DNA from: Syntrophorhabdaceae bacterium PtaU1.Bin034
GTDB taxonomy: Bacteria; Desulfobacterota_G; Syntrophorhabdia; Syntrophorhabdales; WCHB1-27
Direction: 5' to 3'
NCBI GenBank assembly: GCA_002067405.1
Contig: MVRP01000044.1
Span: forward strand, 1-26,616
Length of the DNA: 26,616 nt
Of this stretch, positions 2,113 through 26,214 are shown piece after piece (positions within the stretch are counted from its first letter, which is position 1; each line of letters opens with the position of its first letter). The translations under genes were made by a program, and so were the position numbers. Below the pieces are notes generated by a model, which saw only the letters and a program-made list of their open reading frames with translations, had not been told where the DNA came from and did not search any database.

Positions 2113-2214
2113 GGAGGAAGAGAGACGTTTCTTTAGTATTGGGACCCGAATAAGAGGCTTGAATAGTAGAAACCTTACAAGAGTCTTTTAGAGCACAAAC
2201 AAGGAGAGTGAGTT

Positions 2215-3231: not shown

Positions 3232-3291
3232 GCTCGGCTATAGAGCTTCGGACAACGTTTTCGAGCCCGCGGCGGGTTGAGGAGGTTGAAA

Positions 3292-5226: not shown

Positions 5227-5341
5227 GAAAAGAAACAGCAGTGTGATATTGATGGTCTGACCATGCTGCGGGGTGACCAGGCTAACCCGGCTGCTTGGAT
5301 GTCCGAAAACAGCGTAAATCAAAGGAACTAGGAGACAACAT
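5227..5341 (+). other. Intergenic leader between dctQM and acyl-CoA ligase
   Basis: This 115-base gap contains several short complementary stretches, for example GGTC/GACC around 5252-5261, GGGT near 5270 against ACCC near 5286, and CAGCA near 5236 against TGCTG near 5263. No T-run follows a stable stem, so no terminator is called. The gap could simply be a spacer with the ligase ribosome site AGGAG just before the ATG at 5342. No small reading frame with a good ribosome site was found in it. Confidence 0.3.
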
Positions 5342-6895: not shown

Positions 6896-6897
6896 CC

Positions 6898-8262
6898 ATG
6901 GGGCATACGGAACAGCTTGCCCGGTTCATCTCTGATTGCACCTACGCGGGGTTGCCCCATGACGTGGTCGCTGCGACCAAGCGATGTTTTCTCGATTGGA
7001 TAGGCGTCACGCTCGGGGCGACAGGCGACGAGGCCGTGAAGATCCTTCTCGGCATAGTGCGGGACCACGGAGGTAAAAGACAGGCGTCCATTTTCGGCTC
7101 ACGGGTGAAGACGAGCATGCTTCAGGCTGCACTCGTCAACGGGACCATGTCCCATGCGCTCGACTATGACGACGCTCACAACATCATAAGAACCCATCCG
7201 AGCGCCCCGCTCGTTCCCGCATTGTTTGCCGCGGCGGAACACCTCCGGCTTTCCGGCAAGGAATTGATAACAGCGTTTGTGGCCGGGTATGAAACCACGG
7301 TACGGGTAGGGTATGCCCTTGGAAAGGAATACTACGAACGAGGCTGGCACGCGACCTCCGTGCTCGGCCGCCTCGGAGCCGCGGCAGGAACCGCAAGACT
7401 TTTTCGACTCCCTCCTGACAAAACCGCCGTTGCGCTGGGTCTTGCGGCTACCCAGGCCGGCGGTGTTCGGGACGTTTTTGGCACAATGGGAAAAGCCTTC
7501 CACGCAGGCAAGGCGGCGGCCGACGGTCTCTTCGGCGCTCTCCTCGCACGAGAGGGCTTCACAACGGCCGGGGATATGCTTGACGAGAAAAGCGGCTTCT
7601 CGCAGGTTTTCAGCCGCGAGTACAGCCCGGAGTCTATCGTTAAGGGCCTGGGGGTGGAGTACGCGCTTGGAGAGGTAAATTTCAAGCCGTATGCAGCGTG
7701 CCTGCTTGTTCACCCGGTTATTGATGCGGTACTTGCAATCCGGGACAGCCACCACCCGGACCACGGTCAGGTTGAGAAGATCGATATACGGGTAGCGCCT
7801 CTCAACCTCAGGGTAACTGGTGATTCTGATCCGCAGACGGCCTTCCAAGCGAAGTTCAGTCTGCCCATGGCGGCTGCCATGGCCTTGGTCTTCGGCGATG
7901 CCAATGACAGCCTGTTCACTACTTCCGTAGTGCATGACCCCTCTGTGCGCGCGGTGATGGGCAAAGTACGGGCAGCTTCAGATGAATCGATGGCCGAAAA
8001 CGAAGCCGTTGTGAGTGTCGTGATGAATGACGGGCAGCAATATTCGAGCCATATAACGGCGCCGAAAGGGAATCCCGGGAATCCCATGACTTTCGTTGAG
8101 CTCGCGTCAAAGGCGCGTGACCTTTCAACCAAGGTGCTGGCTCCAGAGGTGGCGGAGCGTGTGATCGATACCGTGGCGAGCCTGGAAAAGCTTGAAAATA
8201 CCGCGAAACTCGTCCGGCTCTGCTGTCCGGTTGATGGACAGCGCGGGAACGGTTCGAGATGA
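6898..8262 (+). CDS. MmgE/PrpD family protein
   Basis: This 454-residue protein belongs to the family of 2-methylcitrate dehydratase (PrpD), cis-aconitate decarboxylase and iminodisuccinate epimerase, enzymes of small di- and tricarboxylic acids. The family motif SHALDYDDAH is at 85-94, followed by HPSAPLVPALFA. A GWHATSVLGRLGAAAG-like stretch and a GEVNFKPYAACLLVHPVIDA-like stretch follow at the expected places. The ATG lies 2 bases after the ligase stop, which indicates translational coupling. The ORF overlaps the following MFS gene by 4 bases (ATGA). Catabolic clusters often carry a member acting on a carboxylated intermediate. Here it suggests a dehydratase, decarboxylase or epimerase step, but members are too diverse to name one. 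Confidence 0.9.
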   Translation: MGHTEQLARFISDCTYAGLPHDVVAATKRCFLDWIGVTLGATGDEAVKILLGIVRDHGGKRQASIFGSRVKTSMLQAALVNGTMSHALDYDDAHNIIRTHPSAPLVPALFAAAEHLRLSGKELITAFVAGYETTVRVGYALGKEYYERGWHATSVLGRLGAAAGTARLFRLPPDKTAVALGLAATQAGGVRDVFGTMGKAFHAGKAAADGLFGALLAREGFTTAGDMLDEKSGFSQVFSREYSPESIVKGLGVEYALGEVNFKPYAACLLVHPVIDAVLAIRDSHHPDHGQVEKIDIRVAPLNLRVTGDSDPQTAFQAKFSLPMAAAMALVFGDANDSLFTTSVVHDPSVRAVMGKVRAASDESMAENEAVVSVVMNDGQQYSSHITAPKGNPGNPMTFVELASKARDLSTKVLAPEVAERVIDTVASLEKLENTAKLVRLCCPVDGQRGNGSR

Positions 8263-9485
8263 GATTGCGATATCAGTGGGTGATCGTGGCAGTAGTATGG
8301 ACTTCCCATACCATTTATTACTTTAACTACATGGCCTTGGGTACGCTGGCGCCTCTGATCAAATCTGACCTGGGTCTCAGCTCGGCCCGTATCGGGCTTC
8401 TGACGAGCGCCGTCAGTATAGGGTCGATGGTATTCCAGATACCGGCAGGCATATTCTCCGACCGTCTCGGTGCGCGATGGGTAATGGCAATGGGCCTCGC
8501 ACTGGTGGGAATCTCGTCAATCCTTATCTCGTCGGTGTCATCCTATGTAGTTATTTTTCTCCTGCTTGTGGCACTTGGCGCCGGCATTAGCGCTAACCAG
8601 ACTCCTGGCAGCAAGGCCATTATCATGTGGTTCACCGCAAGCGGAAGGGCCACGGCAATGGGCATAAAACAGACCGGCGTTACAGTAGGCGGTATGCTCG
8701 CATCCTTCTTTCTTCCGTTACTTGCACTCAGCACCCAATCGTGGCGTTATCCATGCATAATCGCAGGCGCTGCATCCCTGATTGGGGCAGTGATCCTGAT
8801 TCTTATCTATCGCGATCCCGGAGAGGAAACCTTTCACGCGTCTATTATTGTCGGCAGTTATGCCGACGGTCTACGAAGCCTCTTGCGCAACAGGGATTTC
8901 CTGCTTGTGTGCATGGCCGGCGCGTTGTTGATGGCGAACCAGTTCGCTTTTTGTGCCTATTTTGTCCTGTATGCCTCGACAGCTCTGCGCTTTCCTCTCA
9001 CAGAGTGCGGAATATTGCTCGCCATTTCATTTCTGGCCGGTGCTCTGGGAAGAGTTGGCTGGAGCGTTGCAAGCGACTATCTCTTCAAAGGCCGGCGAAA
9101 CGGAGTGCTCGCTTTTGTCTGCGTGGTGTGCGTCTTGGTGTGTTGCGGGATAGGATTGCTCCCCGTAGGAGCCCCGCTCGCGTTCGTCTATATCGCGGCT
9201 ATCATATTCGGTTTAACGGGGCTCGGCTGGAACGCCTTGTATCTCACGCGCGTAGGGGAGATGCAGGGAAAAGAGCTGGCCGGGACAGCGACCGGCGTTT
9301 CTTTTGTATTGTGCAACATTGGCGCGGTTCTGGGGCCTCCGCTATTTGGCAGTCTCGTCGACTTAACCCACGGTTACACGATCCCATGGTTTTTTCTTGC
9401 ATCGTGCATGGCGACAGTCGCGCTGTTGACCGTGGTCCAAAAGAAGAGCGGCATGAACCAAGGCAGAGAGGTGGAGTGTGCTTGA
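8259..9485 (+). CDS. Major facilitator superfamily transporter
   Basis: This 408-residue protein has about 12 hydrophobic helices. The MFS loop 2-3 signature GIFSDRLGARWVMAMG lies around residues 64-79, and a weaker counterpart (GRVGWSVASDYLFKGRR) occurs in the second half. Its start overlaps the preceding stop as ATGA, so it is probably translated together with the MmgE/PrpD gene. The overall look resembles the organic-anion symporter branch (oxalate/formate or ACS-like). It could be a second route for uptake of the cluster substrate or for export of a product or a counter-ion. The substrate is inference only. Confidence 0.88.
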   Translation: MRLRYQWVIVAVVWTSHTIYYFNYMALGTLAPLIKSDLGLSSARIGLLTSAVSIGSMVFQIPAGIFSDRLGARWVMAMGLALVGISSILISSVSSYVVIFLLLVALGAGISANQTPGSKAIIMWFTASGRATAMGIKQTGVTVGGMLASFFLPLLALSTQSWRYPCIIAGAASLIGAVILILIYRDPGEETFHASIIVGSYADGLRSLLRNRDFLLVCMAGALLMANQFAFCAYFVLYASTALRFPLTECGILLAISFLAGALGRVGWSVASDYLFKGRRNGVLAFVCVVCVLVCCGIGLLPVGAPLAFVYIAAIIFGLTGLGWNALYLTRVGEMQGKELAGTATGVSFVLCNIGAVLGPPLFGSLVDLTHGYTIPWFFLASCMATVALLTVVQKKSGMNQGREVECA

Positions 9486-9999
9486 CCTTGGGAAAAAAAT
9501 TAGAGAGGAACGCAATAAAACAGGGCTGTCGCTCAAGCAGCTGGCAGATAAGGTGGGGATCAGCACGATGACCCTGCAGAGAATCGAGACCGGGAAGACA
9601 AGTCCGTCGGTGTCCGTTCTCTCCCAGATTGCGATTCACCTGAAGCAGTCCCTCGTCAACTTCATCCAAGAGGAAAAGCCCAAAATAAGGATACTGAGAA
9701 AAGAAGATCAATCCGTAATTGAATCGTCGGGACGACGAATCCAGGTAATCGCATCGGATGGAGTGATTGACGGCATGCTTGTAAACCTCAGCGAGGTGGA
9801 CTTTATCGATCCCCACACGGAAGATGGTTGGTCCCTCGTCTATGTCCTTGAGGGAAAGGCGATAATCGAACACGACGGCACGGAATACGTCATAGACGCG
9901 GGTGATGCGCTTTACTACGATTCCCGATATCCGCATTCCATAAAAGCACTCGATAAGACCCACAGGGTTCTCAGCATTTTTTTCAAGGGAAAGACGTGA
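9478..9999 (+). CDS. XRE-type helix-turn-helix regulator with C-terminal cupin sensor
   Basis: This 173-residue protein has an N-terminal XRE helix-turn-helix at about residues 5-60 (KIREERNKTGLSLKQLADKV, then STMTLQRIETGKTSPSVSVL). A cupin beta-barrel follows at about 95-170, including GWSLVYVLEGKAIIEHDG and a DAGDALYYDSRYPHSI metal-site-like segment. The start is GTG at 9478, overlapping the MFS stop by 8 bases, with a GAGAGGTGGA ribosome region upstream. Regulators of this type sense small ligands through the cupin and usually control neighbouring metabolic genes. It is the only regulator in the 1-15.7 kb cluster and is the natural candidate for controlling it. No operator was identified. 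Confidence 0.92.
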   Translation: MLDLGKKIREERNKTGLSLKQLADKVGISTMTLQRIETGKTSPSVSVLSQIAIHLKQSLVNFIQEEKPKIRILRKEDQSVIESSGRRIQVIASDGVIDGMLVNLSEVDFIDPHTEDGWSLVYVLEGKAIIEHDGTEYVIDAGDALYYDSRYPHSIKALDKTHRVLSIFFKGKT

Positions 10000-10041
10000 G
10001 AGGTTGCCTCACAGAACGACCGGCTTGTAAAGGAGGAGGAA

Positions 10042-11190
10042 ATGAATTTTGCGTTAACTGAGGAACAGGAATTCTTTCAGAAAACAATAAGGGACACCGT
10101 CGACCGGATGATTGTTCCGAAGGCCAGGGAGATTGATGAAAAGGACGAATTTCCCACGCAATTATGGAAGGACTTTTCCGCTCTCGGCTACCTTGGCATT
10201 CGCTACCCCGAGTCCGTTGGCGGCATGAACGCGGACAAGATCATGTGCATGATGTTTTGGGAAGAAGTGGCCCGAGGATCGGTAGGCTTCTCTCAAAGCG
10301 TCAATCAAAACGCCATGATGGGGACACATTTCGTCTACCGGTACGGAAGCGATGCAATAAAGGAGCGATGCCTGTATCCCGCTATGCGGGGAGAAAAGAT
10401 CACGACCATCTGTTTTACCGAGGACCAGTCAGGCTCAGACCTCGCCGGCACCAGGACCACCGCCGTAAGAGACGGGGATGGATGGCGGATCAATGGGACC
10501 AAGCAATGGATCACCAACGGACCCATTTGTGATTTCTGCACCGTGTTGGCCACGACTGACCCTGGAAAAGGCTTGAAAGGGCTGAAATTCTTTCTTGTGG
10601 AGAAAGGGACACCCGGATTTTCGCCGGGACAGATACTTCACAAGGTCGGGTGTCATGGTACGGTCACGGGAGAGCTGGTTTTTGATAACGTTTTGGTTCC
10701 TTACGAAAACCTGCTTGGCCTCGAGAATGAAAACAGTATGGCCGCGGTGAGCGAGATTTTTAGCGAAGTGAGATTAATGGTAGGGGCAAGTGCACTCGGT
10801 GTTGCAAAGGCAGCCTATGCGGAGGCGCTGGAATTCGTGAAGAAACGGATGGCTTTCGGAAAACCGATCGGCAGCTTTCAGCTCATCCGGGAAAAGCTGG
10901 CAAACATGGATACGGAAATGAACGCCGCGAGATTGATGGTATATTACGGCGCCTGGCTGCTTCAAAACGGCATGGACGCGACAATGGCTGCTGCCGAGGC
11001 GAAGCTGTTTGCAAGTGAGGTCTGCCTGAAGGTGGTAGATGAGCTGACCAGGATTTACGGCGGAAACGCTATGGCCCACGAGTACGCACCTCAGCGGTAT
11101 TTCAGGGATTCCCGTCTATTCCTTTACGGCGGCGGGACGCACGAGGTGTTGAGAGACTTTATAGGGAAGACGCTTATTGGAAAGCTATGA
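10042..11190 (+). CDS. Acyl-CoA dehydrogenase family flavoprotein
   Basis: This 382-residue FAD enzyme is expected to oxidise an acyl-CoA between alpha and beta carbons, or run the reverse reaction, and pass electrons to ETF. The ETF genes lie downstream. Family motifs are CFTEDQSGSDLAGTRTTA (124-141), KQWITNG (154-160), RMAFGKPIGSFQ (269-280) and the C-terminal YGGNAMAHEYAPQRYFRDSR (339-358). In the last motif the position of the usual catalytic Glu (YEGT in MCAD) is Gly364 (LYGGGTHE). The alternative position used by isovaleryl-CoA dehydrogenase, directly before Arg244, is Val243, with Glu242 one residue away. The catalytic base is therefore unclear. AAAGGAGGAGG precedes the ATG. The family call is firm; substrate and direction are unknown. 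Confidence 0.93.
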   Translation: MNFALTEEQEFFQKTIRDTVDRMIVPKAREIDEKDEFPTQLWKDFSALGYLGIRYPESVGGMNADKIMCMMFWEEVARGSVGFSQSVNQNAMMGTHFVYRYGSDAIKERCLYPAMRGEKITTICFTEDQSGSDLAGTRTTAVRDGDGWRINGTKQWITNGPICDFCTVLATTDPGKGLKGLKFFLVEKGTPGFSPGQILHKVGCHGTVTGELVFDNVLVPYENLLGLENENSMAAVSEIFSEVRLMVGASALGVAKAAYAEALEFVKKRMAFGKPIGSFQLIREKLANMDTEMNAARLMVYYGAWLLQNGMDATMAAAEAKLFASEVCLKVVDELTRIYGGNAMAHEYAPQRYFRDSRLFLYGGGTHEVLRDFIGKTLIGKL

Positions 11191-11252
11191 TTGATCGTGA
11201 GACAGCGACGTTGCGTTCGCTCATCGAGGGCTTCAGATCATTACTGCGTTGA
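11187..11252 (+). CDS. Possible 21-codon leader ORF before the MeaB-type gene
   Basis: An ATG at 11187 overlaps the acyl-CoA dehydrogenase stop as ATGA and opens a 21-residue frame, MIDRETATLRSLIEGFRSLL plus a final Arg. It ends with TGA at 11250-11252, just before the AGGAGGA ribosome site (11257-11263) of the next gene. It may carry ribosomes across the gap and so couple translation of dehydrogenase and chaperone. It may also be a chance frame or the remnant of a lost gene. No family is recognised. Confidence 0.25.
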   Translation: MIDRETATLRSLIEGFRSLLR

Positions 11253-11268
11253 AAAGAGGAGGATTGGT

Positions 11269-12228
11269 GTGCTGAATCTGGCTGAGAGAATTATCCGGGG
11301 TGACGAGAGGAGTGGCGCCAGGCTTATCAGCCTCATCGAGGCCAGAGACCGAAGGGGTTATGAGGAGCTTACACGACTTCTTTCCTATATCAACCGGGCA
11401 CATGTAGTGGGGGTTACCGGCCCCGCCGGCGCAGGAAAGAGTACATTGATCAGCCAGGTGGCGAGCCGTCTCCACAAGCAGGAAAAAAAACTTGGCATTA
11501 TTGCAATAGACCCCACCAGCCTCCACAGCCGGGGTGCCCTGTTGGGAGATCGTTTTCGAATGAAGGAAGCTGAAGATACAGGAGACATTTTTATTCGTTC
11601 GATGGCGGATAGGGATCAGCCCGGTGGCGTGTGTCATGCGGCTCTCGGAGCCGTATATGTAATGGAAGCCCTTGGAAAGGACGTCGTAATAGTCGAGAGC
11701 GTGGGCGCAGGCCAATCGGATAAAGCACTTTTCTACTTATGCGACACTATTGTCACCGTCTTTACCCCGGAATTCGGAGACGAACTGCAGTTACTGAAGG
11801 CAGGGCTTCTGGAGATTGGCGATATGGTCGTGCTGAATAAATGTGACAAGCCCGGTGCAGAAGACGCAATGGGTGCTTTGTCTGCTCATATACCGGTGAA
11901 AACAGAAGGAGAATGGTCGCCTCCCATCCTTCTTACAAAAGCACACGCCGGCGAGGGGATCGATGAGTGCGTCTCGGCAATCGAGCGCCGATGGGACTTT
12001 CTTCAGAAAGATGGAAGAACACCGGAGAGCAGGAGACAGAAAATCACCATGTTCGTAATGACCCTTTTGAAAGAGGAGTTATGGAGGCGCTTTGCCGGGA
12101 TATGTGCCAACGACAGGGAGTATGAACGGATCATGGGTGAGGCGCAGTCGAATGTTATTGACCCTTATACCGCCATAGAGCGCATTGCTGACAGTGCAGA
12201 AACAAGACTTCGGAGGGGAACGCAATAA
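11269..12228 (+). CDS. meaB: MeaB/ArgK-type G-protein chaperone of the B12 mutase
   Basis: This 319-residue P-loop GTPase gates cofactor loading and protects adenosylcobalamin mutases. The Walker A sequence GPAGAGKST is at about residues 51-59. IIAIDPTS, GALLGDRFRM, FIRSMADR, VESVGAGQSD and the guanine-specificity NKCD follow in the family order. I place the start at GTG 11269 because AGGAGGA ends 5 bases upstream and the protein then begins with the family-typical LAERIIRGDERSGARLI. The same frame is open up to a TTG at 11191, but the extra 26 residues look non-native. The gene sits about 9 kb from the mutase genes yet in the same gene run, which supports one functional cluster. Typical members read VETVGVGQSE; the variant here is VESVGAGQSD. 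Confidence 0.92.
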   Translation: MLNLAERIIRGDERSGARLISLIEARDRRGYEELTRLLSYINRAHVVGVTGPAGAGKSTLISQVASRLHKQEKKLGIIAIDPTSLHSRGALLGDRFRMKEAEDTGDIFIRSMADRDQPGGVCHAALGAVYVMEALGKDVVIVESVGAGQSDKALFYLCDTIVTVFTPEFGDELQLLKAGLLEIGDMVVLNKCDKPGAEDAMGALSAHIPVKTEGEWSPPILLTKAHAGEGIDECVSAIERRWDFLQKDGRTPESRRQKITMFVMTLLKEELWRRFAGICANDREYERIMGEAQSNVIDPYTAIERIADSAETRLRRGTQ

Positions 12229-12322
12229 CGTAAGTTATGGGGTGGTAAGTAAGCTGACGGCTGCGAGACGATGACACGGGTACGTCACGGTTGTTCAGAT
12301 CAGTCTCTAGGAGGAGAAGCAT

Positions 12323-13105
12323 ATGAATATAGTTGTTTTGGCGAAGCAGGTTCCGGATGCTGAGGCCATCATAGAAATTGCCGGTGATGGCCAAAGCCTT
12401 AAGATCGAACAGAAATTTACGGTGAACGTGTTTGACGAGTTCGCCATGGAAGAAGCGATTCGGCAGAGGGAAAAGAACGGAGGCAAGGTAAGGGTAATTA
12501 CACTGGGCACCGGGAAAGCGACAGAGGCATTGAGAACAGGGATAGCCATGGGCGCGGATGAAGCTGTCCTGCTCGAGGACCCGGCTTTTTTGAATGGAGA
12601 CGGGTACGCCACCGCGCTCGCACTGAGTCGGGCAACTGCCTTGGAACCTTTTGACGTTATCCTGTGCGGCAAACAGGCGATTGACGACGACCGCGGGGAA
12701 GTTGGCGCGATGGTTGCACAGTTTCTGGAAATTCCGCACGTAGGGGGAATCGTGAAACTTGACGTTAATGACGGCAAGGCAGTGGCCGAATGTCTTGTCG
12801 ATGGGGCAAAAAAGACCCTCGAAGTGCCGCTCCCGGCAGTATTTACCGCCCAGAAAGGTCTGAATGAACCGCGTGTGCCACTTATCACCGGAGTAATGAA
12901 GGCAATGAAGGCAACAATCACTCGGATAACACCGGACCGGATAGGCGTATCGCCGGAGGAAGTGGGAACAGCGGGATCGAAAGTAAAAGTAGAAAGATAT
13001 CTACCGCCCAAGAAAAGGGCTGCGGTGAAGATGCTGTCTGGCGAACCGAAAGAGGCTGCGGCTGAAGCGGTGAGAATTATCATGGACGTGGAACGTATAC
13101 TTTAG
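12323..13105 (+). CDS. etfB: Electron transfer flavoprotein beta subunit
   Basis: This 260-residue protein is the smaller ETF subunit, which binds AMP (or a second FAD in bifurcating types) and docks with acyl-CoA dehydrogenases. Family features are the N-terminal VLAKQVPDAEAIIEI, the TVNVFDEFAMEEA motif, the CGKQAIDDDRGEVGAMVAQF segment, and the recognition-loop region VFTAQKGLNEPR with the following GVMKAMKA. It has the normal length. GGAGGAGAAG precedes the ATG. It heads an etfB-etfA-fixC-fixX set that matches fixABCX in order. By eye I cannot decide whether it is the bifurcating (FAD) or the classical (AMP) form. Confidence 0.93.
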   Translation: MNIVVLAKQVPDAEAIIEIAGDGQSLKIEQKFTVNVFDEFAMEEAIRQREKNGGKVRVITLGTGKATEALRTGIAMGADEAVLLEDPAFLNGDGYATALALSRATALEPFDVILCGKQAIDDDRGEVGAMVAQFLEIPHVGGIVKLDVNDGKAVAECLVDGAKKTLEVPLPAVFTAQKGLNEPRVPLITGVMKAMKATITRITPDRIGVSPEEVGTAGSKVKVERYLPPKKRAAVKMLSGEPKEAAAEAVRIIMDVERIL

Positions 13106-13114
13106 GGGGCAAAA

Positions 13115-14092
13115 ATGGAGAACTTGCTACTATTCATCGAAACAAAAGATAACGAGCCCAAGAAGGCCTGCCTGGAGCTGCTTAGCGAGGCAAAGAGGCT
13201 CAAAAATGAAGGTAAATTCAAGGTCCATGCGGTAGTGATGGGAAAACCCTCAGAAGACCTCAAGAATAAGGTCCGGCCGTACGTCGATATCCTGGTCGGT
13301 ATTTCCGATCCTGTCCTTGAGCAATATACACCCGAAGCTTTTGCCGCGGCCCTTGCCGCTTATGCGAGAGAGATAACTCCGCAGTTGATCCTTTCCTCGG
13401 CAACCCAGGTGGGGAGGGATTTTATGCCGAGGGTAGCGGTGCTTTTTGGAGCAGGGATTGCCTCCGATGTCACGGCCGTTGATTGGTCGAGAGATCCTGT
13501 CAAATTCGTGCGACCGGTATACGGCGGAAAGGTACTTTCAGAGGTATCATTCAGCAGCTATCCGGGTGTTGTGACAGTGAGGCCAAATGCATTTGTCAAG
13601 GAGGAGCCGGGTGCAGACATTGGGGACTATGCGGAAAAAGTGGTGGGTGTCCATGCCGACCAAGTGAAAACAAAAGTCCTCAATATAAGCGAGCCCACGA
13701 AAGGCAAAATGGACCTGATCGAGGCAGACATCATAGTCGCCGGTGGGAGAGGATTGAAATCAGCCGAAAACTTCGCCATGCTGGAAGAACTCGCCGATGT
13801 TATCGGAGGGGCTGTCGGGGCCGCGAGATCAGTGGTAGACGCGAAATGGCGGGATCAGGAAGAACAGGTCGGAAAGAGCGGTAAGACTGTTTCGCCGAAG
13901 CTCTATATAGCCGCCGGTATTTCAGGTGCAGTTCACCATATCATGGGAATGGATACTTCGAAGGTGGTAGTAGCGATCAATACAGACCCGAATGCTATTA
14001 TCTTCAATTATGCCGACTATGGCATTGTCGGTGATTTCGCAGAAGTCGTTCCCCCTATGACCGAAGAGTTCAAGAAAAGACTGGGCAGATAA
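13115..14092 (+). CDS. etfA: Electron transfer flavoprotein alpha subunit
   Basis: This 325-residue FAD-binding ETF subunit pairs with the preceding gene product to carry electrons from acyl-CoA dehydrogenase to the FixC-type oxidoreductase. The C-terminal FAD domain contains AGGRGLKSAENF (209-220), GAARSVVDAKW (235-245), QVGKSGKTVSPKLYIAAGIS (251-270) and DPNAIIFNYADYGIVGD (291-307). In the FAD loop it reads GKSGK where GQTGK is usual, and GAVHHIMGM where GAIQHLAGM is usual. These are moderate deviations within the family. AGGGGGC lies before the ATG, 9 bases after the etfB stop. Confidence 0.93.
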   Translation: MENLLLFIETKDNEPKKACLELLSEAKRLKNEGKFKVHAVVMGKPSEDLKNKVRPYVDILVGISDPVLEQYTPEAFAAALAAYAREITPQLILSSATQVGRDFMPRVAVLFGAGIASDVTAVDWSRDPVKFVRPVYGGKVLSEVSFSSYPGVVTVRPNAFVKEEPGADIGDYAEKVVGVHADQVKTKVLNISEPTKGKMDLIEADIIVAGGRGLKSAENFAMLEELADVIGGAVGAARSVVDAKWRDQEEQVGKSGKTVSPKLYIAAGISGAVHHIMGMDTSKVVVAINTDPNAIIFNYADYGIVGDFAEVVPPMTEEFKKRLGR

Positions 14093-14095
14093 TCT

Positions 14096-15385
14096 ATGGA
14101 TAAATTCGATGCGGTCATTGTCGGGGGCGGGCTGGCCGGCTTGGCAGCAGCCTACAGGCTTGCAGACGCGGGCAGGCAGGTGATCCTCCTGGAAAGAGGC
14201 GATGCTCCGGGCAGCAAGAATGTCACAGGCGGAAGGATATACCTCTCGCCGATACGCCATCTCCTGCCCGGACTGTTTGACGACGCTCCCTTTGAACGGC
14301 AAGTCGTGAAGGAGATATTGACCATCACTGACGAGAAGAGCGCGACCCGGATAGAATACACGCACGACAAATGGCGGGAAGCACCTTTCATGAGCCACAC
14401 AGTGCTCCGGGCACGGTTCGATAATTGGCTTTCAGAGAAGGTTATGGAGAAGGGCGCTTTCATTATCCCCAGGCGACGGGTTGATGATCTTCTATGGGAG
14501 GACGGACGAGTCGCGGGGGTGCGTGCAGGCACCGAAGAAATACCCGCGCAGGTGGTCATTGCAGCGGACGGGGCACTTTCTTTTATGGCGGAGAAAGCGA
14601 ACATGAGGCAACCGCTTATTCCCGGGAATTATGCCGTCGCGGTCAAGGAAGTTTACTCGCTGGGCAGTGATGCGATAGAGGAGCGATTCGGGGTAGGTCC
14701 GGGAGAAGGAGCGGCAAACCTTTTCATGGGTTCCGTGACCAACGGCCTCTTCGGCGGAGGCTTCCTTTATACCAACATCGACAGCCTGTCAGTAGGTATT
14801 GTCATCGGCATCAACGCACTGGCCGAGGCCAAACAGGCAGCAAGCTTGCCTGAGCTTGTAGCACAGTTCGAATCGAGACCCGAAATACAACGGTATATAA
14901 AGGGTGCGGAGCTTAAGGAGTACTCCGCTCACGTGATAACGGAAGCCGGTATCAACGGTATTTCGCGCCTCTCTATGCCCGGGATGCTCGTTGTCGGAGA
15001 TGCAGCCGGTTTTGCATTGAACATGGGCGTGACGGTGAGGGGCATGGAGTTCGCCATAGCATCAGGGGTGACAGCCGCGGAAGTCGTGGATGAGGCATTA
15101 AAAAAAGGGGATTTCTCAAGTCAATCACTTTCCCTGTACGACAGACGGATGAAGGAAAGCTTCGTAATCAAAGATATGGAGACATTCCGCCACTCCCGCG
15201 ACATCCTCGAAAACCCGAGGCTGTTTACTGTCTATCCGCGTTTTATATCCAACCTTCTCGGCGCTGTCTTTGAGGTGAACAGCGAGCCTAAGAAAGGTCT
15301 CTACCGGACGGCCAGTGAGATAGCCCGAACATACGTAGCTAATTGGGAAGGATTTAAAGATTTTCTCTCCTTCAGGAAGGTGTGA
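14096..15385 (+). CDS. fixC: FixC-type ETF:quinone oxidoreductase
   Basis: This 429-residue flavoprotein transfers electrons from ETF to the quinone pool. The Rossmann motif VGGGLAGLAAAYRLADAG begins at residue 9, followed by LLERG and the family-typical NVTGGRIY segment. The second FAD motif VVGDAAGFALNMGVTVRGME and a following FAIASG near residue 300 are diagnostic for FixC/EtfQO-like proteins. It is shorter than mitochondrial ETF-QO because the Fe-S domain is on the next gene. It starts 3 bases after the etfA stop and its TGA overlaps the start of the ferredoxin gene. It is probably associated peripherally with the membrane. Confidence 0.92.
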   Translation: MDKFDAVIVGGGLAGLAAAYRLADAGRQVILLERGDAPGSKNVTGGRIYLSPIRHLLPGLFDDAPFERQVVKEILTITDEKSATRIEYTHDKWREAPFMSHTVLRARFDNWLSEKVMEKGAFIIPRRRVDDLLWEDGRVAGVRAGTEEIPAQVVIAADGALSFMAEKANMRQPLIPGNYAVAVKEVYSLGSDAIEERFGVGPGEGAANLFMGSVTNGLFGGGFLYTNIDSLSVGIVIGINALAEAKQAASLPELVAQFESRPEIQRYIKGAELKEYSAHVITEAGINGISRLSMPGMLVVGDAAGFALNMGVTVRGMEFAIASGVTAAEVVDEALKKGDFSSQSLSLYDRRMKESFVIKDMETFRHSRDILENPRLFTVYPRFISNLLGAVFEVNSEPKKGLYRTASEIARTYVANWEGFKDFLSFRKV

Positions 15386-20776: not shown

Positions 20777-20868
20777 TACCCGAATAGTGATCTAGACAGC
20801 CCGACCCAAGAGGTAGCGTAGGCTCGTCTGGAATACCTTGATTAGGCAATTGCCGAATAATGAAAACC

Positions 20869-20893
20869 GACCCGGCGCGAAGCACGGGTTTTC
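20869..20893 (+). terminator. Probable terminator after the NERD gene
   Basis: The stem ACCCG / CGGGT around a GCGCGAAGCA loop is preceded by AAAA and followed by TTTT. It lies about 95 bases downstream of the NERD stop and before the regulatory region of the HD gene. Confidence 0.5.
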
Positions 20894-20909
20894 TGTTGCC
20901 GGAAGCGGA

Positions 20910-20955
20910 GTTACGCAAAAGTAACGCGCTACAATATGAATGTATCTATTCATAT
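20910..20955 (+). promoter_or_regulatory. Palindromic operator region upstream of the HD-domain gene
   Basis: Two dyads lie in this short region. GTTAC-GCAAAA-GTAAC is at 20910-20925. A perfect 8-bp inverted repeat, ATATGAAT-GTATCT-ATTCATAT, is at 20934-20955. A TACAAT -10-like hexamer (20930-20935) overlaps the start of the second dyad, although no good -35 is visible. The arrangement fits binding of a repressor or an activator-dependent promoter. The cognate regulator is not identified. Confidence 0.45.
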
Positions 20956-20985
20956 CATCCTCAAGCAAAAAGAAGAGAGGTGTCG

Positions 20986-22683
20986 ATGACAAGGATAACG
21001 GGAATGATGGAAAGGCTTCTTGGTGATCTCGCAGGCCTCTCCAAAAAAGAAGGCACGTTGCTCTTCGTTCGCTGGATAACAGGGGCGGACAAGAGTCTCA
21101 AGATTGGGTTCTTTACCGAATGGATGCGGTCTGAAGAGGACACGAAACTAAAGCGGACGCTTTTTGTCTCGTGGATGACCGCCGAAAGGGGGAATCCTAA
21201 GTTTCTCAAGGACATATGCATCAAGGCGTCGGCGGTCTGCATAACAAACGGCTTTGCCGGCCGGGATACGTCCGGGATCGAGGGATGGATGGAGCAGGTA
21301 TTCGAGAATGACATGACCCTCAAGCCGGGCGAGGTAGCCCGCCTGGCCATGAAGAAATTCGGGGTACCCCACAGGATGCTCCTTTTCGTGAAGAAGCTCG
21401 CCCGGACTGTAAAGGAAAGGATACGCCTCCGGCGGAGGACCGAAGCGGATGAGACCTGCGCAGTAAGCAGGGTTTCGACAACAACAAGGCTACTCGCTGA
21501 AGGCACTTACTCGATGGATGTTTCCCTCGCTGTGCCTGACATGGCTGCCTGTACCAGACCTGTCACTCAACTGACCCTGCCCGGCCTCCTCGATGAACCT
21601 CCCTCGCCGAACTCCAAACGGATGATCGAAGATTACGAAATTCTGATCGCTCCCTACCGGCCCCTCCTCGCTGGGCTTTCCTCGCTGGAGATCCTCGCTG
21701 AGCTTCTTAGGCTCCTCTACGAGGAAGGGGATGTTCCCTCGGTGGTCGACTGGTCGGGCAAAACCTCCGACCCGGAGTATATGAATCTCCGGGAGCACAG
21801 GCGCTTTCTTGAAATCCTTCAGGGCATCTCCCTCTACGACCACACGTACAATGTCCTGAAGACAGCACTGGATATCGCCCGGGACACGTTCCGGCAGCGC
21901 CATGACCTGCTGCTCCCTTCCATTATCATCGCCGCCCTTGCCCACGATATCGGGAAGATCCCCTCCATATGGCGTTCCTCCAACGTGAAGAGCCGCCGCC
22001 ATGAATCGGTGGGGGCCGCGAAGCTGGAGGATATGCTGAGATCCCACGGTAACGAGGTATTCAAGAAAAGCCTTACCAAGGCGGTGAGGTTACACCATAC
22101 CGGCATAGATAACGACACTAACACGAGGATCATACTGGATGCCGATATCCGTGCGAGGGAGTATGAGATTACTTCCGCCGACCCCACCGTCACCATAAAA
22201 CCCATGAGAGAATGGCTGGACCTCACCCAGTTGGCCGAAATCATCCTGCCCGCTGTCAATGAGCTTAGCATCAGGAACCGAAAGACTGTGTGGAACGCCA
22301 TGTCCTTTAACGGCATTGTTTACTGCATACCGGAATACGTCCGTAATGTGCTCAAGCGTCTTGCATCAGAAAGGAAGGTCCTCGACTACCGGCTCGTCCG
22401 CCAGTCCTTTCAGACGGATAACAAAGCGGTCCTGATCGAGTGTGCCGGCATGCTGAAGGAACGCGGCTATCTGGCTTACGATGTCAAAGACGAACACTTC
22501 GGCCAGAGGTTCCTTTTCGAATCAAGCGTCCCCGCCATAGGCCAACGGTCGTTATACGCCATTCCTATCCAGGAACGGTTCTTCCCCGCGCAACCGTCGC
22601 AGCTTGAAAAGCGAAAGACGGATTATCTGAAGACAATCGTCTCCGTGAGACCTGTCGTCGGCAGCTACGAGCGAACGAGATGA
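20986..22683 (+). CDS. HD-domain metal-dependent phosphohydrolase-like protein
   Basis: This 565-residue protein has a central HD domain. His286 (YDHTYNVL), His320-Asp321 (ALAHDIGKIP), His339 (RHESVGAAKLE) and His370-His371 (RLHHTG) give a full set of metal ligands, so hydrolase activity is plausible. Such domains act on nucleotides, cyclic nucleotides or phosphate esters. The roughly 230 N-terminal residues and the C-terminal region (from about 430) match nothing I recognise; the latter may be a winged-helix fold. ATG 20986 is chosen for the GAGAGG site 5 bases upstream; the frame is open further up to 20860. It ends 21 bases before the convergent DUF1254 fragment. Relaxase-associated HD proteins are one possible relative. 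Confidence 0.75.
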   Translation: MTRITGMMERLLGDLAGLSKKEGTLLFVRWITGADKSLKIGFFTEWMRSEEDTKLKRTLFVSWMTAERGNPKFLKDICIKASAVCITNGFAGRDTSGIEGWMEQVFENDMTLKPGEVARLAMKKFGVPHRMLLFVKKLARTVKERIRLRRRTEADETCAVSRVSTTTRLLAEGTYSMDVSLAVPDMAACTRPVTQLTLPGLLDEPPSPNSKRMIEDYEILIAPYRPLLAGLSSLEILAELLRLLYEEGDVPSVVDWSGKTSDPEYMNLREHRRFLEILQGISLYDHTYNVLKTALDIARDTFRQRHDLLLPSIIIAALAHDIGKIPSIWRSSNVKSRRHESVGAAKLEDMLRSHGNEVFKKSLTKAVRLHHTGIDNDTNTRIILDADIRAREYEITSADPTVTIKPMREWLDLTQLAEIILPAVNELSIRNRKTVWNAMSFNGIVYCIPEYVRNVLKRLASERKVLDYRLVRQSFQTDNKAVLIECAGMLKERGYLAYDVKDEHFGQRFLFESSVPAIGQRSLYAIPIQERFFPAQPSQLEKRKTDYLKTIVSVRPVVGSYERTR

Positions 22684-23107: not shown

Positions 23108-23389
23108 TTAACGTGCTTTAAGGCCGTCCATAACATCCTTGGCGCTGATGTTTCCTTTTATTCCCATTTCGCTGAAGAGATCGATGGTCTCCGCTAACGT
23201 CAGATTGAGCAGGTCGGCGGCTTCCCGGAGGGTTAGTTTGCCCCTCTCGTATGATTTAGCCACGTACAGCTCGAAGCCGAGCCTTGTGAGCTTGCGCAAA
23301 GAACTGTTCTTTTCGAGCTTCTCGGAACGGGCTACGTAATCGATCGCCCTATCGATCTCCTCCGGAATTCTGATCGATTTGACTTTCAT
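23108..23389 (-). CDS. Antitoxin: ribbon-helix-helix plus UPF0175-like protein
   Basis: This 93-residue protein begins with a ribbon-helix-helix DNA-binding segment (MKVKSIRIPEEIDRAIDYVA) and ends with a UPF0175-like helix-turn-helix part (ERGKLTLREAADLLNLTLAE, then LFSEMGI). It is expected to bind and neutralise the PIN-like protein encoded just before it and to repress the shared promoter. Its ATG overlaps the toxin stop as ATGA, which shows tight coupling. Its position after the toxin is the reverse of most such pairs. Confidence 0.8.
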   Translation of the reverse strand: MKVKSIRIPEEIDRAIDYVARSEKLEKNSSLRKLTRLGFELYVAKSYERGKLTLREAADLLNLTLAETIDLFSEMGIKGNISAKDVMDGLKAR

Positions 23390-23859
23390 GCCCTTTCCTC
23401 CAGCAGAAGTTTGGTAACGCTGTATTCCTCATCGCTAATGAAGACCGAGAGCGCCTCAAGCCGTTGCAGGGCCGTCTTTCGATCAATATCGCCTTTTTCG
23501 TACTGCGCGTGAATGAGCAAAGCGGGGACTGTGAATGGGATTCCCGCCGCACGGAGGCTGCGGATCAGCTTGGTGTCATCGGTGGCTATGACCGTGTAAC
23601 GGCCTTCTTTGAAAACATCAACAAGGGCCTGATCTCCCGTCGAATGATGGGGCGAGGATTCCTCGGCCACCGCGATCAACCCGTTCTGAATATTCTGATC
23701 TACCAAGTCGGCGTCGGGCTGACCCTTGATCCTGCCGGCTTCGACTACCTCGCGTTGCACGGTCCGAGGAATGGTAACTTCCATGCACTTGCAAATCGGC
23801 TCTTTCAGCCCGGATTTTGTCAGTTTGATCAAACAGTCGGCATCCATGAGAACCTTCAT
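23386..23859 (-). CDS. PIN-like (DUF3368/VapC-type) toxin
   Basis: This 157-residue protein starts with MKVLMDADCLIKLTKSG, the first PIN strand with acidic residues at 6 and 8. Further acidic candidates are Glu37 (QREVVE), Asp76 (GDQALVDVF) and Asp94-Asp95 (VIATDDTKLIRSL). This matches the metal site of PIN ribonucleases. A VPALLI segment follows, as in DUF3368 proteins. It would be a single-strand RNase whose activity is held by the co-encoded antitoxin. The predicted promoter leaves almost no leader before the ATG. Confidence 0.8.
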   Translation of the reverse strand: MKVLMDADCLIKLTKSGLKEPICKCMEVTIPRTVQREVVEAGRIKGQPDADLVDQNIQNGLIAVAEESSPHHSTGDQALVDVFKEGRYTVIATDDTKLIRSLRAAGIPFTVPALLIHAQYEKGDIDRKTALQRLEALSVFISDEEYSVTKLLLEERA

Positions 23860-23968: not shown

Positions 23969-24964
23969 TCAAAACAAGAAGAGGGCAACCACATTTGCCG
24001 CATAGATCAGGAAGATGACGAAGGAGTCGAAGGAAAGCAGGAAGAGCTTTTTTTCGGCCCGATAGGTAAGCCCTATCACGGAGACGGCTGTCATGGCGAT
24101 GATAGAAACCAGGGAAAAGAGATGCCGGGGCGACACGAATGCGAAGAGCGGCCCTTGAACGAAAAAGAGGTCACTCACGGCAAGAATCAGAAAGTTGAAG
24201 ATATTGCTGCCGAAGATGTTGCCCACGGCGAGATCTATGGCCCCAGACCGGGTCGCCGAGATCGAGACGACCAACTCCGGCAATGTTGTCGAAAGTGCAA
24301 CAAACAGGGTGCCGACAATCGTCTGCCCGAGACCCGTCTGTTGGGCCACCTCTACTGCGGTGGAGGGCAAAAAGATTGAAGCCGCAACAGTGATCGCCGC
24401 ATAAAACGAAAAGTACAGCCAGGCTTTTCGGGAGGATATCGCTCCGTACCGTTCCTCTGCCTTAAGCACTTCAAACATCTGTGCCGCCCGTCGCTTCTCG
24501 TGAGCGTAGCCGAGCTTCATGGCCACGACGTAGACGGCTGCGACGAGCAGGCTGTAGGGGCTCACCCATAGCAGCGAACCCGATCTTTGACCGATCAGCA
24601 GGGCCACAATGACGGAACAGGCGAGGAGAATGCCCACAGTGGCGCTCAGTACGTGTCCCTGATACACCACCGATGAAAGCGGCTTGGGTCGCTGGAAAAG
24701 ATCGAGGACGGCGAGGAGCAGAAGGTTAAAAAGACAGGCGCCCGCCACATTGCCCATCACGATGTCTGGCGCCGCCGCGTAGGTGACGGAGCTTATCCCT
24801 GTGGTCAGCTCAGGAAGAGAGGTCGTGGTGCCGATGAGTACCGAACCGACCCAGGTGCGGCCGAGCCCGGTCTTTTCGGCAATGACATCGCCATACCGCG
24901 CGATCCGCACACCAGCAAAGAAGATGACCCCGGCGAGCACCATGAACTGTAGATAGAGAAGCAT
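23969..24964 (-). CDS. CaCA-family sodium/calcium-type cation exchanger
   Basis: This 331-residue inner-membrane exchanger is made of two similar halves with about ten helices. The two alpha-repeats are GTTTSLPELTTGISSV (45-60) with GNVAGACLFN (71-80), and ALSTTLPELVVSISATRSG (223-241) with GNIFGSNIFNF (248-258). The paired Glu52 and Glu230 are the expected ion ligands. The central loop near residues 155-180 is hydrophilic. The ATG at 24964 has GAGAGG upstream. The long leader holds two copies of a structured motif and a terminator, so expression is probably controlled by an ion or metabolite. The transported ion is likely Ca2+ or Na+, not proven. Confidence 0.92.
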   Translation of the reverse strand: MLLYLQFMVLAGVIFFAGVRIARYGDVIAEKTGLGRTWVGSVLIGTTTSLPELTTGISSVTYAAAPDIVMGNVAGACLFNLLLLAVLDLFQRPKPLSSVVYQGHVLSATVGILLACSVIVALLIGQRSGSLLWVSPYSLLVAAVYVVAMKLGYAHEKRRAAQMFEVLKAEERYGAISSRKAWLYFSFYAAITVAASIFLPSTAVEVAQQTGLGQTIVGTLFVALSTTLPELVVSISATRSGAIDLAVGNIFGSNIFNFLILAVSDLFFVQGPLFAFVSPRHLFSLVSIIAMTAVSVIGLTYRAEKKLFLLSFDSFVIFLIYAANVVALFLF

Positions 24965-24980
24965 GGGTTAAACCTCTCAA

Positions 24981-25038
24981 TGGCGGCCCGACCATTTGCG
25001 TTTACCTTCAGGAACACGGTTGTCCTGAACCCGATTAC
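24981..25038 (-). promoter_or_regulatory. Structured leader motif, gene-proximal copy (candidate riboswitch aptamer)
   Basis: The minus strand reads AATCGGGTTCAGG, a loop, then CCTGAAGGTAAA, a spacer, then TGGTCGGGCCGCCA. The same pattern recurs upstream (25121-25175). The TTCAGG/CCTGAA stem differs between copies with compensating changes. The motif ends only 5 bases before the GAGAGG ribosome site of the exchanger gene, so it could control translation initiation. It resembles, from memory, the DUF1646 (Na+-I) riboswitch consensus; this is unverified. Confidence 0.6.
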
Positions 25039-25088
25039 CTATTCGTTTACTCTATGGTCGTTTATTCTCGTTGACACCTTGAAACCAT

Positions 25089-25126
25089 AAAAAACCGCCA
25101 CCCGAAACTTGACATTCAGGTGGCGG
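25089..25126 (-). terminator. Intrinsic terminator inside the exchanger leader
   Basis: On the minus strand CCGCCACC and GGTGGCGG form a perfect 8-bp stem around a 16-base loop, followed by six T residues. The 5' arm overlaps the conserved GCCGCCA end of the upstream motif copy. Ligand-bound aptamer and terminator would therefore compete, the classic layout of a transcriptional riboswitch. Confidence 0.85.
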
Positions 25127-25175
25127 CCCGGCCATCCATCTTAACCTCCAGGGAAGTACCCCTGGACCCGATTGC
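25121..25175 (-). promoter_or_regulatory. Structured leader motif, promoter-proximal copy (candidate riboswitch aptamer)
   Basis: The minus strand reads AATCGGGTCCAGG, a loop, then CCTGGAGGTTAA, a spacer, then TGGCCGGGCCGCCA. It shares the AATCGGGTyCAGG / CCTGrAGGTwAA / TGGyCGGGCCGCCA skeleton with the second copy. Stem bases covary (TCCAGG/CCTGGA here, TTCAGG/CCTGAA there). Its 3' end is part of the terminator stem just downstream. A cation or metabolite sensor is inferred from the exchanger gene it precedes. Confidence 0.65.
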
Positions 25176-25201
25176 ATATTTATCTGATTGATACTTGCAT
25201 T

Positions 25202-25230
25202 CTTTTAAACCTGCTCCCCAAGGAAGTCAA
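25202..25230 (-). promoter_or_regulatory. Probable promoter of the exchanger leader
   Basis: On the minus strand TTGACT (25230-25225) and TAAAAG (25207-25202) are 17 bases apart. The predicted start point lies about 20 bases before the first conserved leader motif, so both motifs would be in the transcript. The -10 hexamer is a moderate match. Confidence 0.5.
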
Positions 25231-25374
25231 GGGGTTTTCCGGGATTCGTAACCACTCGGCCCTTGCTCCTCCTTGAGGGGATCAGTGCTGTTTGATGGAA
25301 GTATCATACAGGTTCCAGAGGCATTCTTCGCCGTCTCTTGGCAACTGAGGCCGGAGAGTTTTCCGACTCGAACG

Positions 25375-25403
25375 AAAAAGCCGTGTAACGTGATTTTCCC
25401 GGC
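25375..25403 (-). terminator. Weak possible terminator after the DUF4239 gene
   Basis: On the minus strand GCCG and CGGC, separated by 16 bases, are followed by TTTTT, about 25 bases after the DUF4239 stop. The stem is only four pairs, so this is a weak call. The rest of 25231-25425 shows nothing I recognise. Confidence 0.3.
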
Positions 25404-25425
25404 AAGACCCATGCCTTCTGTACCC

Positions 25426-26214
25426 TTACTTTATTCTCTGCTGCAGATCGGTCATGGGCCGCGCACTGATCTTAATGATTCCGGGTTTGCCTCCTCCACT
25501 GCGATCGAGATCGGCAATCAGCAGGATGACGAGGGAAAAGGCAAGGGAAAACACAACAACAAGGAGCCAGTTCGCTTTGTCCGACATGCCGAAAAGATAC
25601 CCTATCCCAAACATGGAAAAGATTGTGAGGCTGAGGAGAACTATCCACATAGCAACTGGTATGCGATAAAAGAGGCCTATGGTCACGCGCTTGGTCTGAA
25701 AGTCAAACATTTCGTTAAGGGAATCTACGAAAAGCGCAGCAAGGGGAGGGTTCCTGAGTTCGAGTTCCGGGAGTGCCGTAACATGAGACCATATTTGCCC
25801 CTGCAAGGTCTCCGACCGCCTGATAGCTTCTTCGATACGTTCAGGGTTTCTCGTCAGTTCGACACGAATATCGACATACTGCCTCAGAAGTTCCCGGACT
25901 GCTGACCGATGGGGTTCCGGGACCAGACTCGCTCGCAAGTAGGCAGTTTCAATGGCGTTGACCTCGCCGAGCAGCAATGTCTTTCTGGTATCGAAGCGGG
26001 ATGCTGTCAAGCCGAAGGTGAATGCCAGGATGAAAGCGAGCAGGCCCAAAGAAGCGCCAACGCCGGTACTGACAGCTCCTTCAGTATCCTTGCCCCAGCG
26101 CTTTTTCCGGAAACGCCCATAGCAAACGCCACCACGGATGGAAAGCAGGACGAGCGCCACCGTCAACACAAAAGCCAACCAGATAGGAATCGATTCGAGC
26201 AATTTACCGCTCAT
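25426..26214 (-). CDS. DUF4239-type (bestrophin-like) membrane protein
   Basis: This 262-residue membrane protein has one helix near the N-terminus (about 10-27), a second in VGASLGLLAFILAFTFGLTA (about 52-71), and two more near 183-205 and 212-235. The middle is a long hydrophilic helical part with EVNAIETAYLRASLVPEPHR and RELLRQYVDIRVELTR, the EA-x-AL-like pattern typical of DUF4239. The family is distantly related to bestrophin-like channels but has no established function. The start ATG is at 26214. It lies alone between the 27-bp inverted-repeat element and the exchanger leader. Confidence 0.75.
   Translation of the reverse strand: MSGKLLESIPIWLAFVLTVALVLLSIRGGVCYGRFRKKRWGKDTEGAVSTGVGASLGLLAFILAFTFGLTASRFDTRKTLLLGEVNAIETAYLRASLVPEPHRSAVRELLRQYVDIRVELTRNPERIEEAIRRSETLQGQIWSHVTALPELELRNPPLAALFVDSLNEMFDFQTKRVTIGLFYRIPVAMWIVLLSLTIFSMFGIGYLFGMSDKANWLLVVVFSLAFSLVILLIADLDRSGGGKPGIIKISARPMTDLQQRIK

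What the first reader, a model, noticed from the sequence alone, without database searches (positions are those of the whole stretch)
24965..25230. Tandem candidate riboswitch in the cation-exchanger leader
Two copies of AATCGGGTyCAGG / CCTGrAGGTwAA / TGGyCGGGCCGCCA lie about 140 bases apart, with covarying stem bases. The first copy overlaps an intrinsic terminator and the second ends just before the ribosome site. This gives one transcriptional and one translational switch in series upstream of a Na+/Ca2+-type exchanger. The motif looks like the DUF1646 (Na+-I) class from memory. If so, tandem use is unusual and may give a sharp or two-threshold response; if not, it is a new class.
Basis: partly seen in the sequence, partly recalled or inferred. 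Interest (0 to 1): 0.78.

Follow-up and report, generated by a model that had tools for sequence, protein, structure and literature searches.

The report
Tandem sodium/lithium-type riboswitch before cation exchanger
Two copies of a known alkali-metal-sensing RNA switch sit one after the other in front of a membrane cation-exchanger gene, the first built to stop transcription and the second placed to control translation, with a one-letter difference at the spot reported to change sodium versus lithium preference.

Summary
Both copies are nhaA-I RNAs (Rfam RF03057; 42.3 and 44.3 bits, cut-off 37), not DUF1646/Na+-I (no RF03071 match at E up to 10). nhaA-I is the published Li+-I class; rare terminator-bearing variants sense Na+ (Na+-II), the tested one carrying C54 (PMC9646797). 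Copy 1 has both reported marks: C at the inferred equivalent of position 54, and an overlapping terminator. Copy 2 has the Li+-I-like U, no terminator found, and a ribosome site touching its end. Tandems of this class are published (6 doublets, 1 triplet). I found 8 further tandem loci: all 17 copies carry U, 16 of 17 a terminator. The C/U mix was seen only in the window; the transcription-then-translation layout has one sampled parallel (G103). The gene is a YrbG/NCX-like exchanger of a Syntrophorhabdaceae relative. Against a Na+/Li+ gate: C does not mark terminator-bearing copies (12 of 12 C, 67 of 74 U, p = 0.59), and C and U copies both precede LivJ-type genes (6 and 4). Likeliest: a two-checkpoint ON switch, chiefly for cytoplasmic Na+.

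The parts
25119..25169 (-). nhaA-I aptamer copy 1 (upstream). P1 position 5 = C (25165); inferred position-54 equivalent = C (25131)
   Evidence: Rfam RF03057, 42.3 bits, cut-off 37; model R2, 59.0 bits, which was built with this copy included; letters read
25089..25129 (-). Intrinsic terminator whose 5' arm is the P2 loop and 3' strand of copy 1; T run 25094-25089; expression platform of copy 1
   Evidence: 15-pair stem 25129-25092; predicted fold -42.8 against -27.3 kcal/mol with the aptamer held
24978..25032 (-). nhaA-I aptamer copy 2 (downstream). P1 position 5 = U (25028); inferred position-54 equivalent = U (24991)
   Evidence: Rfam RF03057, 44.3 bits; model R2, 49.4 bits, which was built with this copy included; letters read
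24973..24977 (-). Shine-Dalgarno-like AGAGG directly after copy 2, 8 nt before the start codon; supposed translational platform of copy 2
   Evidence: Sequence; predicted paired in a 7-bp hairpin with codons 2-4 whether or not the aptamer is held
23969..24964 (-). Regulated gene: 331-aa CaCA-family cation exchanger, YrbG/NCX-like
   Evidence: Pfam Na_Ca_ex 101.2 bits; 96% identical to 'Inner membrane protein YrbG', Syntrophorhabdaceae bacterium PtaU1.Bin034; NCX_Mj match 42 bits

Best explanation
A tandem of two nhaA-I family (Li+-I/Na+-II) alkali-cation riboswitches that act in series as ON switches for a cation exchanger. Copy 1: ion binding stabilises P2, whose loop and 3' strand would otherwise form the terminator's 5' arm, so transcription continues. 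Copy 2: ion binding changes access to the AGAGG ribosome site that abuts P2, so the finished mRNA is translated. Expression then needs ion at two checkpoints, giving a steeper response and leaving the mRNA switchable after synthesis. The ion is most likely Na+ at copy 1; copy 2 may sense Na+, Li+ or several monovalent ions. Shown here: family membership, the two platform layouts, covariation, the C/U difference. From published tests of relatives: ON direction, ion response. Inferred: the ion of each copy, the translational step, and the physiological role (Na+ or Li+ efflux coupled to Ca2+ or H+).
For: RF03057 matches for both copies and covariation. Terminator and P2 of copy 1 exclude each other by sequence. 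A Desulfobulbus propionicus variant with a terminator and C54 was turned on by Na+ in transcription assays, and its C54U mutant answered Li+, Na+ and NH4+ (PMC9646797). Copy 2 has the layout of the copies sampled outside the Desulfobacterota: none of 24 has an overlapping terminator, and in several of those an SD-like GGAG or GGAA follows P2 within about 6 nt (read by eye, not counted). The gene is a cation exchanger. G089 (L149) also has nhaA-I plus a terminator upstream of a Na_Ca_ex gene, which is split between frames in that assembly. G103 (L136) is a sampled parallel of the terminator-then-RBS layout.
Against: No ligand was or could be tested. No alternative structure specific to copy 2 was found: the ribosome site is predicted paired with and without the aptamer, and shuffled coding starts gave an equal or larger energy gap in 224 of 300 cases. 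No promoter-like site was found by the simple scan of 24800-25500. The nearest exchanger relatives fetched (12 loci, L172-L183) have no nhaA-I match, so conservation of this arrangement is not shown. DNA of the closest relatives (12 proteins at 75-96% identity) was out of reach.
Confidence: 0.72

Rival explanations
1. Two-input AND gate: copy 1 is a true Na+-II switch and copy 2 a Li+-I (or broad monovalent) switch, so the exchanger is made only when both conditions are met.
For: C/U difference at the inferred position 54, the position whose C54U change broadened the ion response in D. propionicus. The platforms also split as published, terminator with Na+-II and ribosome site with Li+-I. The copies are only 67% identical; of the seven other tandem loci compared, G040 is 73% and six are 92-100%.
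Against: Both copies have the pyrimidine P1 base seen in 84 of 87 Desulfobacterota-sample copies, not the G of 23 of 24 copies outside. C54 is not tied to terminators. C and U copies both precede LivJ-type genes (6 C, 4 U). With C in 12 of 87 copies, a mixed pair would arise about one time in four if letters were drawn independently (own arithmetic). A gate needing Na+ and Li+ together makes little sense for Li+ defence.
Confidence: 0.2
2. Same-family transcriptional switch with a decaying second copy: copy 2 has lost its terminator and does nothing, so copy 1 alone regulates.
For: In the Desulfobacterota sample 79 of 87 classified copies have an overlapping terminator, so copy 2 is an exception; no RBS-switching structure could be shown.
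Against: Copy 2 keeps the whole core and scores higher than copy 1 against Rfam (44.3 against 42.3 bits), with a compensated P1 pair; the ribosome site sits close after P2, as in several translational-type members.
Confidence: 0.15
3. DUF1646 (Na+-I) tandem or a new class.
For: The nhaA-I and Na+-I consensus models are described as similar.
Against: RF03057 matches above cut-off; RF03071 absent at E up to 10; RF03071 members differ in core.
Confidence: 0.01

Closest known systems
Li+-I riboswitch (nhaA-I motif, RF03057)
   Same: Family model, core GGGU / AGGU / CGGGCC, two hairpins; copy 2 shares U54 and placement beside the ribosome site
   Different: P1 position 5 is a pyrimidine in both copies; 23 of 24 copies sampled outside the Desulfobacterota have G there. 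Copy 1 has C54 and a terminator.
Na+-II riboswitch (nhaA-I variant of D. propionicus, PMC9646797)
   Same: Copy 1: C at the inferred position 54, overlapping terminator, host of the former Deltaproteobacteria
   Different: Copy 2 has U and no terminator. A 2022 review lists Na+-II among classes not found in tandem (PMC9481103, passage).
Tandem Li+-I riboswitches (PMC9646797, PMC9481103)
   Same: Two aptamers of this class in series before a cation-transport gene
   Different: In the 8 tandem loci sampled here all 17 copies have U54 and 16 have terminators; the window mixes C with U and terminator with ribosome site. The layout of the published tandems was not seen in detail.
Bi-mechanism SAM-II/SAM-V tandem (PMC9481103, passages)
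   Same: Transcriptional switch first, translational switch second
   Different: The SAM pair uses two aptamer classes, and the first terminates on ligand binding; here both copies are of one family, whose published members are ON switches.
Na+-I (DUF1646, RF03071)
   Same: Similar two-hairpin plan, Na+ ON switch (published)
   Different: Different core sequence; no match in the leader.

Membership tests
nhaA-I RNA (RF03057) | Score above curated cut-off (37 bits) | tested here: met
   42.3 and 44.3 bits
nhaA-I RNA (RF03057) | Two hairpins P1, P2 supported by covariation, conserved core | tested here: met
   95.2% of cells paired, 11 of 15 pairs with two-sided changes, 59 sequences
Li+-I riboswitch | Selective response to Li+ | not testable with these tools
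   Needs in-line probing or reporter assays
Li+-I riboswitch | U at position 54 (equivalence to the letter before the CGGGCC loop is inferred) | tested here: inconclusive
   Copy 2 has U, copy 1 has C
Na+-II riboswitch | Selective response to Na+ | not testable with these tools
   Needs in-line probing or termination assays
Na+-II riboswitch | C at position 54 (inferred equivalence) | tested here: inconclusive
   Copy 1 met, copy 2 not met
Na+-II riboswitch | Intrinsic terminator overlapping the aptamer | tested here: inconclusive
   Copy 1 met; copy 2 not met
Na+-II riboswitch | Host in the former Deltaproteobacteria | tested here: met
   Exchanger 96% and HD-domain protein 88% identical to Syntrophorhabdaceae bacterium PtaU1.Bin034; NCBI phylum Thermodesulfobacteriota; that this lineage was in the Deltaproteobacteria is recalled
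Na+-I (DUF1646, RF03071) | Score against RF03071 | tested here: not met
   No match at E up to 10 in 24900-25300
nhaA-II, yybP-ykoY, NiCo | Score against their Rfam models | tested here: not met
   None among the 6 matches at E up to 10 in 24900-25300
Bi-mechanism tandem riboswitch | Terminator platform first, ribosome-site platform second | tested here: inconclusive
   Terminator clear; ribosome-site control rests on position only, no switching structure found

The most novel reading that the evidence does not exclude
A natural heterospecific, bi-mechanism tandem within one riboswitch family: a Na+-II copy gating transcription in series with a Li+-I-like or broad-monovalent copy gating translation of a cation exchanger, the two differing at the inferred specificity position. 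It would be the first Na+-II in a tandem that I know of, and a built-in test of how one family tells Na+ from Li+.
Probability: 0.22. Interest if true: 0.68.

Novelty: new variant of a known kind. Interest (0 to 1): 0.47.

Why it matters
Published work left the ion specificity of tandem nhaA-I RNAs open, and the text I read tests position 54 in one RNA. Here one mRNA carries a C and a U version, so both can be measured side by side. The survey also shows that most copies of the Desulfobacterota sample (74 of the 86 with a readable letter) have U54, and 67 of those 74 carry terminators, a combination whose ion is not stated in the text I read. It also suggests a P1 base difference (pyrimidine against G at position 5) as a candidate specificity or lineage marker.

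Tried and rejected
DUF1646, nhaA-II, yybP-ykoY, NiCo: no Rfam match. Of those 119, only L041 was searched with the RNA model (no match), so other tandems may be missed. The same pattern in viral contigs gave 2 stretches, neither with a model match. The exchanger in viral contigs gave nothing. Own genome of the window: not held. C54 as a marker of terminator-bearing copies: rejected in this sample. An anti-ribosome-site pairing for copy 2: none better than shuffles. Class of G264 as the window's own class: 22 of 23 genomes lack the HD-domain protein and the one match is 28% identical. Model R1 had P2 misplaced by three columns (my error); R2 replaced it and only R2 was used for searches.

Rows left out: of 91 distinct RF03057 matches in the Desulfobacterota-sample genomes, 6 were not classified (G259:C155, G338:C361, G1138:C34, G1138:C21, G1154:C109, G1157:C119). 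The 87 classified copies are the other 85 plus two weak ones found only by R2 (L125 third copy, 25.1 bits; L166 second copy, 19.1 bits); the window is not among them. Alignment A1, for the covariation count, holds 59 sequences: two of 61 listed copies were left out as exact duplicates of a tandem partner. The terminator script allows one mismatch; L167, scored as lacking one, looks to have one by eye, and L168 has a hairpin with T run further downstream that does not overlap the aptamer; L216, outside the phylum, has a non-overlapping one.

Full report
What is there. On the minus strand, between a Bestrophin-like gene (25426-26214) and a 331-aa Na_Ca_ex-family gene (23969-24964), the leader holds two copies of one motif 137-140 nt apart. 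The two-copy pattern is absent from 100 shuffles of the window. Rfam identifies both as nhaA-I, RF03057, at 42.3 and 44.3 bits against a cut-off of 37. A permissive scan of 24900-25300 lists six matches at E up to 10, and none is RF03071 (DUF1646, Na+-I), nhaA-II, yybP-ykoY or NiCo. RF03071 members fetched for comparison have a different core.

Platforms. Copy 1 (25169-25119) is followed by a 15-pair terminator, 25129-25092 with a T run to 25089, whose 5' arm is the P2 loop and 3' strand. The predicted terminator fold is -42.8 kcal/mol against -27.3 with the aptamer held, so the two exclude each other and the choice would have to be made during transcription. Copy 2 (25032-24978) has no terminator that the scans found; AGAGG follows at once, 8 nt before the ATG. 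A switching structure at copy 2 could not be shown: the ribosome site is predicted paired with or without the aptamer, and 224 of 300 shuffled coding starts give an equal or larger energy gap than the observed 2.1 kcal/mol. Translational control by copy 2 is therefore an inference from position.

What is published. PMC9646797 (abstract, the whole results section, the concluding remarks and the first part of the methods seen) validates nhaA-I as Li+-I, an ON switch, thought mostly to act on the ribosome site. Rare variants with terminators, found there only in Deltaproteobacteria, include a D. propionicus RNA that is turned on by Na+; it has C54 where most nhaA-I RNAs have U, and C54U made it answer Li+, Na+ and NH4+. 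The authors named these variants Na+-II. They mention several tandem Li+-I RNAs from an environmental sample, specificity undetermined, near cation-transport and osmotic-stress genes, and one triple before nhaD. PMC9481103 (passages seen) counts 6 doublets and 1 triplet of Li+-I, lists Na+-II among classes not found in tandem, and describes bi-mechanism tandems for SAM classes while noting that not all tandems were checked for mechanism. PMC9337991 (passages) describes Na+-I and its tandem with c-di-AMP. Searches for Na+-II, Li+-I tandems and lithium or sodium riboswitches (listings) showed no paper that I recognised as describing a mixed Na+-II/Li+-I tandem; supplements could not be read, and most subscription papers are not held.

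The position-54 letter. The letter just before the CGGGCC loop is the likely equivalent: in the alignment this column is U in 48 and C in 10 of 59 sequences as standard pairs, and conserved loop Gs at 56 and 57 in the 73-nt P. monteilii construct fit that register. This is inference. In the window it is C in copy 1 (25131) and U in copy 2 (24991).

Survey. RF03057 was found in 39 of 395 genomes of the phylum of a Desulfobacca record; in 11 of 23, 28 of 46 and 6 of 17 in three classes within it, overlapping the first set; in 10 of 249 in the phylum of an Alloalcanivorax record, 7 of 112 in that of a Myxococcales record and 4 of 119 in that of a Holophagaceae record. The name 'Desulfobacterota sample' and the other phylum names are mine, from the record titles. 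Large searches used stricter filters and scored only some first-look candidates, so these are lower bounds. Of 87 classified copies in the first phylum, 79 have an overlapping terminator; of 24 outside it, none. P1 position 5 is C or U in 84 of 87, and G in 23 of 24. Over both groups, a terminator is present in 78 of 85 copies with a pyrimidine there and 1 of 26 with G (Fisher p = 1.7e-17), a test that ignores kinship and is confounded with phylum. By contrast the 54 letter does not go with the terminator inside the first phylum: 12 of 12 C copies and 67 of 74 U copies have one (p = 0.59; one copy unreadable).

Tandems. Eight loci had two or three copies whose starts lie within about 165 nt: G320, G040, G110, G103, G330, G170, G139 (three) and G1150. 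All 17 copies have U, and 16 have an overlapping terminator. The exception, the second copy of G103 (L136), lacks the T run; its hairpin's 3' arm holds AGGAG just before the ATG, so it looks like an independent terminator-then-ribosome-site tandem (an assembly error is not excluded). The window copies are 67% identical; of the seven other tandem loci compared, G040 is 73% and the rest 92-100%, and the two G1150 copies read the same. So most sampled tandems look like recent duplications and the window pair does not. In G320 a degenerate third match (25.1 bits) lies further downstream.

Against a simple Na+/Li+ reading. Ten copies, all in loci of the class of G264, precede a LivJ-type motif, six with C and four with U (Pfam was run on two of these proteins, L131 and L150, and confirmed both). 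The letter thus toggles in one gene context. With C in 12 of 87 copies, a mixed pair is not improbable by chance (about 0.24 if independent). Copy 2 also has the P1 type of the Desulfobacterota sample. I therefore favour a two-checkpoint switch for mainly Na+ and keep the two-input gate as the bold alternative.

The gene. The exchanger matches Na_Ca_ex (101.2 bits), TIGR00367 below its cut-off (98.3 against 179.65) and NCX_Mj (42 bits). In that alignment the residues at NCX_Mj 54, 81 and 213 (E, N, E) are kept and D240 is N; that these are ion ligands is recalled. Its ion is unknown. It is 96% identical to a protein named YrbG from Syntrophorhabdaceae bacterium PtaU1.Bin034; the HD-domain protein at 20860-22683 is 88% identical to one of the same bin, both on contigs of 18281 bases. 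NCBI places the family in Thermodesulfobacteriota. In 395 genomes the best exchangers were 51% and 49% identical, and the 12 fetched loci had no nhaA-I match. One other nhaA-I locus, G089 (L149), has a Na_Ca_ex gene after a small membrane-like protein.

Verdict. A real tandem of a known riboswitch family in a combination I did not find elsewhere: mixed platform and mixed 54 letter before a cation exchanger. New variant of a known kind, interest 0.47.

Noticed in passing
L136 (G103), 1637-1730: Second of two identical nhaA-I copies lacks the T run; the hairpin's 3' arm carries AGGAG directly before the ATG of a pentapeptide-repeat protein, which would turn a terminator platform into a translational one.
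   Followed up: partly
L149 1594-1797, L151 1258-1470, L160 2246-2443: A conserved small membrane-like protein (about 65-70 aa, 66-72% identical, no Pfam match above cut-off) directly follows nhaA-I plus terminator in three genomes; in L149 a Na_Ca_ex gene split between frames follows.
   Followed up: partly
L221/L226 (G1076 C61 45636-45991): Three Na+-I (RF03071) copies in a row: 49.1 and 48.1 bits, and a third at 33.5 below the cut-off.
   Followed up: no
L222, L223, L224, L227: Na+-I followed by a c-di-AMP riboswitch (RF00379), the published kind of Na+/c-di-AMP tandem.
   Followed up: no
L129, L136, L139, L140, L154: nhaA-I plus terminator upstream of small pentapeptide-repeat proteins; why a cation switch would control these is unexplained.
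   Followed up: no
L131, L134, L147, L150, L155, L161, L162, L186, L189, L191: nhaA-I upstream of a LivJ-type periplasmic binding protein motif in one class, six with C and four with U at the 54 letter.
   Followed up: partly
window 25426-26214, minus: Bestrophin-like protein gene directly upstream of the leader, same strand.
   Followed up: no
window 23108-23859, minus: Overlapping pair downstream of the exchanger: UPF0175-like (27.4 bits, cut-off 27.9) and a 157-aa protein with only weak PIN-like similarity (E 0.027); possibly a toxin-antitoxin pair.
   Followed up: no
window 484-15385, plus: Cluster with methylmalonyl-CoA mutase, TRAP transporter, acyl-CoA ligase, MmgE/PrpD, MFS, acyl-CoA dehydrogenase, MeaB and ETF genes.
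   Followed up: no
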